This document shows positions 1 to 4,663 of a stretch of 36,986 nt of DNA, in pieces. The translations under genes were made by a program, and so were the position numbers. A model generated the notes under the pieces. That model was not told where the DNA came from and searched no databases. It was given only the letters and a program-made list of their open reading frames with translations. Source of the stretch: an uncultured Pelagibacteraceae bacterium (lineage in GTDB: Bacteria > Pseudomonadota > Alphaproteobacteria > Pelagibacterales > Pelagibacteraceae). The DNA lies in NCBI GenBank assembly GCA_902594245.1, contig CACJLM010000005.1, positions 1 to 36,986 of the forward strand. Reading direction: 5' to 3'. Within the stretch, counting starts at the first letter, position 1. Every line of letters starts with the position of its first letter.

Positions 1-1612
1 ATAAAATATTTTCAATATTATTGTCAAATTTTTCAAGGTCAAAGCCAGCTTGTGAAATTTCAGGTAAAAGACCATTAAATAAAAATTGGTAAGGAGTTTT
101 TTCATTTCTTGATGAAATGATTTCTATTGCTTTATTTACAACAAAATTTTTATATTGCTCATTATCAGTAGTTAATTTTTTAGATTTTCCTTTAATACAC
201 CTTATGTAAAAATCAGATGATGAGGTTCCATATGGCATTGCAACTGCAGATTCACCAGATCTTTTATTTTGTTGATGGAGCATTTTCTCAATTTTAAGCC
301 CAGAATTAAAAATACTTTTCAAGAACATATTCCAAATTTCAGGTTTTTTATTATGAAATGTGAATACTATCTTTCCATTATCTTTTAAAACTCTAACTAA
401 ATTTATTAAACCATGCTCAAATCTTTTTTGATATGTTTCTAAATTTACTGTCTTTGTGTTTACAGTTATTTCATTAGAGAAGTCAGGCTCATAAAAATTA
501 TCTATTTTTTTTAACCAATTTAACCACATTAAGCTCAGATCAAAATATTTTACTAGTCCGCCATAAGGAGGATCGGTCATGATAAAATCTACTGATTTAT
601 CTTCTAGATAATCATTAATATTTTGAATATCTATACAACCAAATTTTAATTCAAAATTCTTTTCTTTAGATTTGTTACCTTTATTAAGAAATATTACTTT
701 AATGTCATTTCTTATATATTTTGATGCTTGATTAAGTGAAGATACAACAGATTGTTGTCCTTTTCTAAAACACGAACTTTTAAATACAACAAGTGGGTTG
801 CTATGGAATTGTCGATTTGGATATATATATGCTGACCTACCCCAGCTTGTTGAGTTAGGTCTATTAGCTGGACCTCTTCGAGGTGGTAACATTTTTGTGC
901 AAAGATGTATGGTCTGAATAAATGAACTTAAAAGCTGTATTTTTAAATCAGACTCCTCCTTTTTTTCAATATAATTAAAGATCTTTGCTAACACATATAG
1001 ATTTCTTTTGGGCCAAAGGTTAGAAAAATTATTTCCTCCTAATTTTTCTATAAAATTTTCTGAAAATGACTCAGATTCTGGAAATTTATCATTAGGAATA
1101 AAGTCTGTTATGGAAATATTTTTTTGATCAACAAATAGCTGATCGTCAATACTATCAGGTTTTTTTTCTAAAATTTTTTTTTGACATTTACATATAACCC
1201 TTATCTCATAAATCTTATCATTTTCTATTTTATGGTTATGAGCAATAGCATTCTGATTACATTCGATGCATTTCGTTTTAAAATAATCTTTATAAATTTG
1301 ATCATTTTCTATTAATTTTATTATTTGATTTGCTTCATTGGTAAATTCTTTTTCGTCAAATTTTGAAAGGTAAAATTTTAAAAAAAAAGTACTTAATGGA
1401 TTAAGATCAAATCCTATGGTTTTTCTTCCAGCTCTTAATGACTCTATAATACTCTCACAACTTCCAGAAAATGGATCTAAAAATACTCCTCCATCAGGTG
1501 TATAATTTTTGATATACTCATACCATATATTATGAGGTTTTTTTCCCCAGTATTTCATCGCACTGTAAATCGCTGGTCTAGTATCTTCTGGAAAAGAAAA
1601 ATTTATATCCAT
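1..1612 (-). CDS. Site-specific DNA methyltransferase (N6-adenine/N4-cytosine type), C-terminus runs off the left edge
   Basis: Not in the supplied ORF track because it has no stop inside the window. Hand translation from ATG at 1612..1610: MDINFSFPEDTRPAIYSAMKYWGKKPHNIWYEYIKNYTPDGGVFLDPFSGSCESIIESLRAGRKTIGFDLNPLST... Motif I-like DPFSGS, catalytic DPPY (FIMTDPPYGGLVKYF, about 563-574), and a CxxC...CxC pair (CIEC...CKC). I read the frame without a stop to position 1. Confidence 0.85.
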   Translation of the reverse strand, partial: MDINFSFPEDTRPAIYSAMKYWGKKPHNIWYEYIKNYTPDGGVFLDPFSGSCESIIESLRAGRKTIGFDLNPLSTFFLKFYLSKFDEKEFTNEANQIIKLIENDQIYKDYFKTKCIECNQNAIAHNHKIENDKIYEIRVICKCQKKILEKKPDSIDDQLFVDQKNISITDFIPNDKFPESESFSENFIEKLGGNNFSNLWPKRNLYVLAKIFNYIEKKEESDLKIQLLSSFIQTIHLCTKMLPPRRGPANRPNSTSWGRSAYIYPNRQFHSNPLVVFKSSCFRKGQQSVVSSLNQASKYIRNDIKVIFLNKGNKSKEKNFELKFGCIDIQNINDYLEDKSVDFIMTDPPYGGLVKYFDLSLMWLNWLKKIDNFYEPDFSNEITVNTKTVNLETYQKRFEHGLINLVRVLKDNGKIVFTFHNKKPEIWNMFLKSIFNSGLKIEKMLHQQNKRSGESAVAMPYGTSSSDFYIRCIKGKSKKLTTDNEQYKNFVVNKAIEIISSRNEKTPYQFLFNGLLPEISQAGFDLEKFDNNIENIL

Positions 1613-1616
1613 ATTT

Positions 1617-1642
1617 GAGCAGTACACTGCTGTGTATTGTTT
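1617..1642 (+). repeat. Hairpin overlapping an inverted 12-nt copy of the tRNA-Met anticodon-arm sequence
   Basis: GAGCAGTACACTGCTGTGTATTGTTTTT: stem CAGTACAC/GTGTATTG (one G-T pair), loop TGCT, then T-run. GAGCAGTACACT (1617-1628) is the exact reverse complement of + strand 1788-1799. Confidence 0.6.
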
Positions 1643-1668
1643 TTAAATTAATAAAGTAATTGTATTCG

Positions 1669-1690
1669 TTGGTAAATAGTTGGTAAATGA
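1669..1690. repeat. Imperfect tandem 11-bp direct repeat
   Basis: TTGGTAAATAG followed directly by TTGGTAAATGA (9 of 11 identical). Confidence 0.6.
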
Positions 1691-1696
1691 TTTTAT

Positions 1697-1712
1697 ACTT
1701 TAAATTTAAAGT
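1697..1712. repeat. Perfect 16-bp palindrome
   Basis: ACTTTAAATTTAAAGT equals its own reverse complement; lies upstream of the methyltransferase start. Confidence 0.6.
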
Positions 1713-1782
1713 TATTGTTTAAATTAATATTGATTTAGCTATACTTTTTAACTAATAAATTTGGTTTTAAGAAAATGATAGA

Positions 1783-1821
1783 TTATGAGTGTACTGCTCT
1801 AACCAACTGAGCTACAGGCCC
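1783..1821 (-). pseudogene. tRNA-Met(CAU) 5'-half fragment, truncated at the anticodon loop
   Basis: Reverse complement GGGCCTGTAGCTCAGTTGGTTAGAGCAGTACACTCATAA has acceptor 5' strand, D-arm, anticodon 5' stem GTACA and loop CTCATAA. It continues as TCTATCATTTTC, with no 3' anticodon stem, T-arm or acceptor 3' strand. Confidence 0.8.
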
Positions 1822-1912: not shown

Positions 1913-2746
1913 ATGATTTACTCTTCTTTATTGAAAAACCTATTAGTAAAGTTAGATATTATCGTCTATAAAAAATGGAATAACCAACCATTAATATCTA
2001 AACCAATTGCAAATAAGCAAAAATATTATGACCTATGGAAAGAAGCATCTTTAAAAAATAATCCTGAAGTAACTGAATTCGAAAAAAATACAGGTTATAA
2101 AATTGAAAATGAGTGGTTAAATAATCTAGCTTTAAGAACACAAATTGTAGTTAAAGAAAGTCAACTCAATTATGCTCATGGAAAAGTTCTTTACAGTGCC
2201 CTACGTGAATATATTTCAAAAAATATTTCAAAATTACAAAATGTTACTATATTAGAAACTGGCACAGCTAGAGGATTTTCTAGCTTATGTATGGCAAAAG
2301 CTATGGATGATAGCGATATTTCTGGATCTATTTTAACTTTTGATGTTCTTCCACACAAAAAAAAAATTTTTTGGAACTGTATTACTGATCATACTGATGG
2401 ACCTCTTTCTAGACAGGAACTGTTAGAACCGTGGGATAATTTAGTTGGTAAATACATAATTTTTCACCAAGGTTATTCAATTATAGAATTAAAAAAATTA
2501 GGGCTTAAAAGAATAAATTTTGCATTTTTGGATGGCGCACACACATATAAAGATGTTTTTTTTGAATTTAATATTATTAAAGAATCTCAAAAAAAGGGTG
2601 ATGTTATAGTTTTTGATGATTATAATGAAAAACTTTTTCCAGGTATAGTTAAAGCTGTTAATGAAATTTGTAATAAATTTGGATATCAAAAAAACTTAAT
2701 TAAATCTTTTGATAATAGAAGTTACGTTGTAGCTAAAAAAAATTAA
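1913..2746 (+). CDS. Class I SAM-dependent methyltransferase (Methyltransf_24-like)
   Basis: ORF of 277 aa; SAM-binding-like ILETGTARGFSSLCMAKAM, LTFDVLPHKK and later INFAFLDGAHTYKDVFFEF. Confidence 0.65.
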   Translation: MIYSSLLKNLLVKLDIIVYKKWNNQPLISKPIANKQKYYDLWKEASLKNNPEVTEFEKNTGYKIENEWLNNLALRTQIVVKESQLNYAHGKVLYSALREYISKNISKLQNVTILETGTARGFSSLCMAKAMDDSDISGSILTFDVLPHKKKIFWNCITDHTDGPLSRQELLEPWDNLVGKYIIFHQGYSIIELKKLGLKRINFAFLDGAHTYKDVFFEFNIIKESQKKGDVIVFDDYNEKLFPGIVKAVNEICNKFGYQKNLIKSFDNRSYVVAKKN

Positions 2747-2836: not shown

Positions 2837-4663
2837 TTAACTTTCTAAAAAACTCTTTAATTGTTTTGATCTACTAGGATGTTTTAATTTTCTTAAAGCT
2901 TTAGCTTCAATTTGTCTTATTCTTTCTCTTGTTACTGAAAATTGTAATCCAACTTCTTCAAGAGTGTGATCTGTATTCATTCCTACTCCAAATCTCATTC
3001 TTAAAACTCTTTCTTCTCTTGGTGTTAGTGTAGATAATATTTTTGTAGTTGCCTCACCTAAATTAGATTTAATTGCTTGCTCTAAAGGAGCAAGTGCTTT
3101 TGTATCTTCTATAAAATCTCCCAAGCTACTATCTTCTTCATCTCCAACAGGTTTTTCCAATGAAACAGGTTCTTTTGAAATTTTCAGTACTTTTCTTACT
3201 TTATCTAAAGGCATCCTTAGTTTTTTCGATAATTCTTCTGGGGTAGCTTCCCTTCCAAACTCACTAAGAATTAATCTTTGAGTCCTTACAATTTTGTTTA
3301 TTGTTTCTATCATATGTACGGGTATTCTAATTGTTCTAGCCTGATCTGCTATTGATCTTGTAATTGCTTGCCTAATCCACCATGTTGCATATGTTGAAAA
3401 CTTATAACCTCTTCTGTATTCAAATTTATCGACTGCTTTCATTAAACCAATATTACCCTCTTGGATCAAATCTAAGAATTGCAGTCCTCTGTTAGTATAT
3501 TTTTTTGCAATCGAAATAACCAATCTTAAATTAGCTTCAACCATTTCTTTTTTTGCTATTCTAGATTCTTTCTCTCCTTTTTGAACTCTGCTAACTAATT
3601 TTTTAAAATCAGTGACAGACATGCCTAATTTATGACTAATTTCTACTAATCTATCTCTTATGTCTTTAAATTCTTGTTTATGTTTTGAAAAAAACTGTTT
3701 CCATAAAGCGTTGGTATCCAAAAATTTTTTTAAGTTTGGGTTGATTTCATTTCCAATATAAAATTTTATAAATTCAGTTCTAGATATTTTGTTATCTATA
3801 GCTAGTCTTAAAAGATTTCCCTCTAAAGATATAATTTTTTTATTTTCCACATAATGTTTTTGAACTAAATCTTCAAGAACAGAAGGAGATAATTGTAATG
3901 ATTTTATATTTTCTAATATATCATTTACTAATTTATCATAACCTTTTTCTTTAGCTGGTGAAAAAATTTGAGAGTTTAAAACACATTCAAGTTTTTCCCT
4001 CTGATATTTAATCAATTTATTATATTCTTTTGTTAAAATATTAACAGTTTTTAAAACTTTTGGTTTTATTTCAGACTCCATTGCTGCAAGCGTTGGGTTA
4101 AAATCTTCATCTTCGTTATTATTTGCTGCCTCATCTTTCTCAGTCTCACCTGAGTTTTTTTGTTTTGCACTTGGACCGGTAGACTCATCTTCCATATAGT
4201 TAGTATCAATATCTATTATCTCTCTAACTAAGATTTCATCTTTTTGAAGTTTGATGTTCCATTCAAAAAACTGATTAGCTGTGATAGGGCTTTGTGAAAG
4301 TGCAATTAACATAATATCTTTTCCAGCTTCTATTCTTTTTGCTATTGCAATTTCACCCTCTCTTGAAAGGAGTTCTACCCCTCCCATTTCTCTTAAATAC
4401 ATTCTTATTGGGTCATCACTTTTTTCAATTGTTTTGCCTTCTTCTTTAGAAGAACTTTCTTTTTTTCTTAATACTTTGAAATCAGATTTTTTCTCAACTA
4501 ATGTAATTTTTTCATCTAAGATGTGAATAAAAGCTTGGGCTAAATTTTCATCTGAAAGATTTCTCTTCCCAAGAGATTTACTAAGCTCTTCATGAGTGAT
4601 AAAACCTCTGTGGGTTCCTCTGCCCATAAGTCTAGCAAACGATTTTGTAATTATTCTTTCCAC
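2837..4663 (-). CDS. rpoD: RNA polymerase sigma factor RpoD (sigma-70)
   Basis: [11 protein letters not shown] (region 1.2), [59 protein letters not shown], and C-terminal [22 protein letters not shown]. Confidence 0.98.

What the first reader, a model, noticed from the sequence alone, without database searches (positions are those of the whole stretch)
1..1612. DNA methyltransferase missing from the ORF track, possibly the first gene of a defence or epigenetic module
A 537+ codon open frame with DPFSGS and DPPY motifs and a Cys-pair region starts at 1612 and leaves the window. No cognate nuclease is visible here. Streamlined SAR11-type genomes carry few restriction systems, so a DNA methylase beside a broken tRNA is a good candidate for an accessory defence or orphan methylation system.
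Basis: partly seen in the sequence, partly recalled or inferred. Interest (0 to 1): 0.7.

Follow-up and report, generated by a model that had tools for sequence, protein, structure and literature searches.

The report
Methylase on a SAR11 mobile element
The cut-off DNA methylase at the start of this ocean-bacterium contig is the first gene of a mobile element that inserts at one methionine tRNA gene; sister elements in related SAR11 genomes carry swappable anti-virus restriction systems at the same spot, usually led by a DNA methylase.

Summary
An open frame on the minus strand (ATG at 1612, 537+ codons, DPFSGS and DPPY motifs, PF01555 above cut-off) runs off the contig start. The 'broken tRNA' is the exact 5' half (nt 1-40, through the anticodon loop) of tRNA-Met(CAT) at 1782-1821. 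Relatives have this tRNA intact between rpoD/tRNA-Val and mlaC.

The same displaced half, ending at the same base, occurs in 17 of 399 genus genomes. In all 21 insertions examined first, a paired motif TTACCAAC-N3-TTACCAAC follows it at 75 or 94/95 bp. Where both ends are held (13), a second pair and an intact tRNA-Met close the far end, 1.6-19.6 kb away. This is a family of site-specific integrative elements. No tyrosine recombinase gene lies inside them, and no gene is common to all.

Cargo is often restriction-modification: 15 of 23 elements carry a DNA methyltransferase, in 13 as the first gene. The window's methylase is rare (2 of 297 family genomes). It is therefore accessory and element-borne, most likely the modification half of a restriction system. 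Its nuclease is not visible because this half-complete assembly lacks the element's other end.

The parts
2..1612 (-). DNA methyltransferase (N6_N4_Mtase type; motif order X/I, Cys-rich insert, IV), start ATG 1612 (GTG 1627 possible), C-terminus cut by the contig end
   Evidence: homologue L029 aligns over residues 7-530, so few residues are missing
1665..1686 (-). paired TTACCAAC repeats (TTACCAACTATTTACCAACGAA), arm-type integrase site by position and sharing; 95 bp inside the tRNA half
1782..1821 (-). displaced 5' half (nt 1-40) of tRNA-Met(CAT): attachment-site remnant and outer boundary of the element
1613..1781 (-). element end between attachment core and methylase start (contains the arm pair), no other ORF of 60 aa
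2752..2826 (-). intact tRNA-Val(GAC), chromosomal flank (outside the element)
2837..4663 (-). rpoD, chromosomal flank (outside the element)

Best explanation
The methylase is the first cargo gene of an integrative element inserted at the tRNA-Met(CAT) gene between rpoD/tRNA-Val and mlaC. The element's attachment site carries a copy of the 5' half of the tRNA. Recombination in the anticodon loop leaves the host's own 5' half stranded on the rpoD side (window 1782-1821) and rebuilds an intact tRNA-Met from the element's 5' half and the host's 3' half on the mlaC side (shown in sister elements; inferred for this one, whose far end is not assembled). Paired TTACCAAC sites 75 or 94/95 bp inside one end and about 101-125 bp inside the other are the likely arm sites of a tyrosine recombinase (inferred). 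The sampled elements have no such recombinase gene, so it is probably supplied in trans by a phage or another element (inferred). The methylase most likely modifies a short DNA motif and protects host and element from a nuclease encoded further left, past the contig end (inferred from sister elements and from homologues elsewhere).
For: Intact tRNA-Met next to tRNA-Val/rpoD and mlaC in relatives. Displaced half ending at the same base in 17/399 genus genomes, reversed control 0. Paired motif at 75 (17), 94 (3) or 95 (the window) bp in 21/21 elements, 13/13 closed by a second pair and an intact tRNA-Met; pair pattern in 20/300 genomes, control 0. Cargo: two C5 methylases + HNH (G035), NgoFVII nuclease (G149), AspBHI-type nuclease (G274), type IIG + PLD-helicase (G531), Z1 + GHKL ATPase with methylases (G244, G468, G361, G404). 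Methylase in 2/297 of the family, no further one in 337 genomes of the class. Homologues sit with AAA + DUF2357 or with a C5 methylase and an N-terminally nuclease-like DEAD helicase. No PF00589 gene inside the elements.
Against: This element's far end, rebuilt tRNA and nuclease are not in the held assembly, so the defence role is by analogy. About a third of sister elements show no methylase (PrsW, trypsin-like and membrane cargo: G312, G436, G574, G206, G415). No helper with matching sites was found in viral contigs. Methyltransferase activity and motif are untested. Recombinase families other than PF00589 were not scanned by profile.
Confidence: 0.72

Rival explanations
1. Element-borne orphan methylase: the element carries a modification enzyme without a nuclease, used for regulation or to shield the element and its carrier from other restriction systems.
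For: No nuclease is seen in the held sequence. Most methylases in Pelagibacter MAGs lack a visible nuclease (PMC9516812). Some sister elements are short.
Against: In most sister elements with a methylase whose neighbouring sequence is held, a nuclease or defence ATPase follows it. Close homologues elsewhere sit beside nuclease-like or ATPase partners.
Confidence: 0.2
2. Assembly or amplification chimera: an unrelated methylase fragment was joined by chance to the tRNA half at a contig end.
For: Contig end; half-complete, fragmented genome.
Against: The junction falls at the same base as in 16 other genus genomes, with the shared arm pair at the family spacing. Chance of the motif in the window is about 0.02 even with 3 mismatches allowed.
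Confidence: 0.02
3. Conserved chromosomal cell-cycle methylase (CcrM-like, GANTC), not accessory.
For: Same Pfam family, and SAR11 do methylate GANTC (PMC9516812).
Against: CcrM model 18.8 bits against a cut-off of 830. Present in 2/297 family genomes.
Confidence: 0.01
4. BREX/Pgl or DUF1156-type defence methylase, part of a larger multi-gene phage-exclusion system rather than a simple restriction pair.
For: PglXI-type PADLOC model E 7e-34; DUF1156 model E 3e-11.
Against: Matches cover only part of 919-960-residue models; DUF1156 scores 42 against a cut-off of 1000. The protein is about 540 residues. No PglZ or Brx genes are in the held sequence.
Confidence: 0.05

Closest known systems
tRNA-integrated genomic islands (Islander definition, PMC4383910)
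   Same: tRNA fragment on one side, intact tRNA on the other, direct orientation, swappable cargo; anticodon-centred crossover
   Different: 5' fragment displaced (159 of 3919 islands in Islander, the rest 3'); no integrase gene inside, so Islander's integrase filter would reject them
Tycheposons (Prochlorococcus; reported in OM43/Methylopumilus at tRNA-Met, PMC10872708)
   Same: marine streamlined host, tRNA site, cargo-bearing
   Different: no tyrosine recombinase in the elements; cargo is mostly restriction-modification here; 5'-half duplication
CIMEs, cis-mobilizable elements (PMC7563491)
   Same: att-delimited, lacking all recombination genes, moved by another element's integrase
   Different: CIMEs are decayed ICE/IME remnants; no conjugative relative was seen, and more than twenty insertions keep matching arm sites and varied cargo
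Marine phage satellites (VEIMEs, PICMIs; named in PMC11389934)
   Same: small, no capsid genes noticed, marine, defence genes common
   Different: satellites normally encode their own integrase (own knowledge); no helper and no packaging gene identified here
N6/N4 methyltransferases with AAA/hypothetical + DUF2357 neighbours (Kurthia, Thiospirochaeta plasmids)
   Same: homologous methylase over most of its length (25-28% identity)
   Different: partner genes not seen here; the Thiospirochaeta protein has an N-terminal HTH-like extension that the window protein lacks

Membership tests
N6_N4_Mtase DNA methyltransferases (PF01555) | profile match above curated cut-off | tested here: met
   48.8 bits against 26.7
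N6_N4_Mtase DNA methyltransferases (PF01555) | AdoMet-binding motif I and catalytic motif IV | tested here: met
   DPFSGS and DPPYG; DPPYG invariant in five homologues
N6_N4_Mtase DNA methyltransferases (PF01555) | methylates adenine N6 or cytosine N4 in a specific motif | not testable with these tools
   needs SMRT/nanopore data or an assay
Type II restriction-modification system | cognate nuclease next to the methylase | not testable with these tools
   left side not assembled; no other element genes in the contig sequence fetched
tRNA-integrated genomic island | displaced tRNA fragment at one end | tested here: met
   1782-1821, nt 1-40 of tRNA-Met
tRNA-integrated genomic island | intact tRNA at the other end | tested here: inconclusive
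   true in 13 closed sister elements; this element's far end is not held
tRNA-integrated genomic island | integrase gene inside | tested here: not met
   no PF00589 inside the fetched element sequence of 17 sister genomes; none in the held half of G000
Tycheposon | deep-branching tyrosine recombinase hallmark gene | tested here: not met
   (sister elements; the rest of this element is not held)
CIME | att-delimited without recombination genes | tested here: met
   (sister elements)
CIME | derives from an ICE or IME | not tested
   no relaxase or conjugation gene noticed among the cargo proteins scanned, but no dedicated search
CcrM | equivalog score | tested here: not met
   18.8 against 830 bits
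DUF1156 anti-phage methylase | equivalog score | tested here: not met
   42.3 against 1000 bits
BREX/Pgl (PglX) | full-length PglX plus PglZ | tested here: inconclusive
   partial PglXI match only; PglZ not visible, sequence cut

The most novel reading that the evidence does not exclude
SAR11 bacteria share a family of integrase-less, att-delimited elements at tRNA-Met that duplicate the 5' half of the tRNA, are moved in trans by an unidentified helper's recombinase, and act as exchangeable immune cassettes in which a DNA methylase usually comes first; the window's methylase is one such cassette with a so far unseen partner.
Probability: 0.5. Interest if true: 0.75.

Novelty: new variant of a known kind. 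Interest (0 to 1): 0.6.

Why it matters
SAR11 are among the most abundant cells in the ocean and heavily infected by phages, yet how streamlined genomes gain and swap defence genes is poorly known. A single chromosomal site with exact ends, shared recombinase-type sites and interchangeable restriction cargo makes that exchange directly traceable in existing genomes and metagenomes. It also predicts a specific missing partner, the helper recombinase. Because the elements lack an integrase and some are under 2 kb, island finders that require an integrase would not list them.

Tried and rejected
1) Other end of this element in the same genome: mlaC to murE region, arm pairs, and fetched contigs C3, C4, C6-C43 against element genes and plasmid partners (C3, C4, C6 and C7 only their first 20 kb, C1 and C2 not read this way). 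Nothing found. 2) Helper phage: exact motif and exact tRNA half in viral contigs gave no hit; 28 viral contigs with the loose arm pair had no tRNA-Met half nearby; the best tRNA-Met-like hits in phage records are annotated as phage tRNAs where annotated. 3) Extra integrase in G149: lies beside tRNA-Leu(CAA), no arm pair, unrelated. 4) The 695-aa protein alone in the 2.4 kb G434 element looked like a mobility gene, but it is missing from most closed elements and has only weak LRR matches. 5) Methylase relatives: no viral-contig relative, one weak phage record, one Clostridia MAG. 6) Structure prediction from three sequences was too poor to use (mean pLDDT 47). 7) Broken tRNA as gene loss or a group I intron: rejected, because sister genomes show a duplicated half and an intact copy at the far end.

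Full report
WHAT IS THERE. The window is contig C5 of a 629 kb, 43-contig, about half-complete genome, and window base 1 is the contig start. The flanking gene order (rpoD, dnaG, carA, carB) and the relatives found fit a SAR11-type host (inference from gene content). On the minus strand an open frame with GTG at 1627 and ATG at 1612 runs off the contig start after 537 residues from the ATG. It matches PF01555 N6_N4_Mtase above the curated cut-off and carries DPFSGS (motif I), DPPYG (motif IV) and a CxxC/CxC insert. DPPYG is invariant among five homologues. A 42% identical Clostridia protein of 520 residues aligns over residues 7-530, so only a short C-terminal piece should be missing.

THE BROKEN tRNA. 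Bases 1821 down to 1782 are nt 1-40 of tRNA-Met(CAT), identical to the intact gene in 12 relatives, and the sequence then departs from the tRNA just past the anticodon loop. In relatives the intact tRNA-Met lies between tRNA-Val/rpoD and mlaC-mlaA-amidase-mraZ-ftsZ. The held half of this genome has no intact copy and no mlaC contig.

IT IS AN ATTACHMENT SITE. One relative (G312) has the same 40-nt half, 4.3 kb of extra DNA, then a complete tRNA-Met and mlaC. Its extra DNA has TTACCAACTATTTACCAAC near both ends, and the window has the same motif at 1668-1686. The exact motif occurs in 7 of 297 family genomes, while the reversed control occurs in none. Every genome with the motif also has a stranded tRNA-Met half. 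Searching for the half itself with any base other than G after it found 17 of 399 genus genomes, control 0. In all 21 elements examined, the paired TTACCAAC motif starts 75 bp (17), 94 bp (3) or 95 bp (the window) after the half. Thirteen elements are closed at both ends. Each has a second pair about 101-125 bp before an intact tRNA-Met, and they span 1.6-19.6 kb. A looser pair pattern found 20 of 300 genomes, control 0, and added two elements with decayed halves (G475, G404) and two with only the far end seen (G449, G358). Repeated insertions with a fixed junction base, fixed spacing and varied cargo are what site-specific recombination leaves. A chimera or a simple tRNA loss does not explain them.

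HOW IT PROBABLY WORKS. The stranded fragment is the 5' half, and the complete gene stands on the other side, so the incoming element must bring a 5' half while the host keeps its 3' half. In the Islander survey only 159 of 3919 tRNA islands leave a 5' fragment (PMC4383910). Repeated 8-mers in pairs at fixed distances inside both ends look like arm sites of a tyrosine integrase (inference). No PF00589 gene lies in the fetched element sequence. Each genome has at most one Xer-like gene of 310-325 residues elsewhere, and one genome (G149) has a second integrase, at tRNA-Leu. No cargo gene is shared by all elements. Movement in trans is therefore the simplest reading, as known for CIMEs (PMC7563491). 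No helper was found, so this step is inferred.

CARGO AND THE METHYLASE. By profile or by BLAST link to a profile-confirmed protein, 15 of 23 elements carry a DNA methyltransferase, and in 13 it is the first ORF of 60 aa or more after the tRNA half. Partners include HNH (G035, G489), NgoFVII (G149), AspBHI-type methyl-directed nuclease (G274), a type IIG enzyme with a PLD-SNF2 helicase (G531) and Z1 plus GHKL-ATPase sets (G244, G468, G404; in G361 the Z1 protein only, before the contig end). Other elements carry PrsW-type, trypsin-like and membrane proteins instead. For background, 42 of 201 whole genus genomes have a C5 methyltransferase above cut-off. The window's own methylase type is rare: 2 of 297 family genomes, and no other of 337 genomes drawn from the class. 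The second family copy (G110) lies with a C5 methylase and a DEAD helicase whose N-terminus looks nuclease-like (reading of the sequence), near tRNA-Leu. Plasmid homologues in Kurthia and Thiospirochaeta lie beside an AAA ATPase or hypothetical protein and DUF2357. The most likely role is the modification enzyme of a restriction system whose nuclease is beyond the contig end.

WHAT IS SHOWN AND WHAT IS INFERRED. Shown: the open frame and its family; the exact tRNA half; its recurrence with the arm pair; closed sister elements with rebuilt tRNA; restriction-type cargo in sisters; rarity of this methylase. Inferred: that this element is closed by an intact tRNA-Met; that a tyrosine recombinase acts on the repeats and comes from a helper; that the methylase has a nuclease partner. 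Not tested: enzyme activity, target motif, excision.

NOVELTY. The methylase itself is a new member of a known kind. The element family is a variant of tRNA-site islands: 5'-half duplication, no integrase, restriction-rich cargo, in SAR11. Ten searches of the open-access library found no description of it, but subscription papers are mostly missing there. From memory, the original tycheposon paper mentions similar elements in co-occurring marine microbes, so prior notice cannot be excluded.

Noticed in passing
window 1913-2746: Methyltransf_24 (class I SAM methyltransferase) gene between tRNA-Val and the stranded tRNA-Met half; it lies outside the element in a second variable interval that ranges from about 50 bp to 4.6 kb in relatives.
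   Followed up: partly
L106:15637-17724: 695-residue protein of unknown function (weak LRR matches) that is the only gene of the 2.4 kb G434 element; homologues near the far end of the G043, G531, G580 and G449 elements, no phage hit.
   Followed up: partly
L076:12835-13173: 112-residue ORF, 93-98% identical between G404 and five other elements (G035, G149, G274, G295, G468) despite different restriction cargo; no Pfam or PHROG match.
   Followed up: no
L113:12636-13535 and L108:3968-5636: Recurrent small module: 62-aa (possible RHH), PD-(D/E)XK nuclease 259 aa, 94-aa, and 148-aa with a weak HTH match; in the smallest element (1.6 kb) it is the only content, without the nuclease.
   Followed up: partly
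L048:2046-4712, L105, L112: Second cargo class: CII-like 153-aa regulator, PrsW-type protease and a large membrane protein in the G312, G574 and G206 elements, trypsin-like protease in G206; function of this set unclear.
   Followed up: no
L146:9111-11377: G149 has an insertion beside tRNA-Leu(CAA) with a 425-aa tyrosine integrase and a serine-recombinase-like protein; separate element type.
   Followed up: partly
L056:15024-19360 with L057:2-1891: G110 (sister genus): homologue of the window methylase with a C5 methylase and a DEAD-type helicase near tRNA-Leu(TAA); apparently a complete restriction-type locus.
   Followed up: partly
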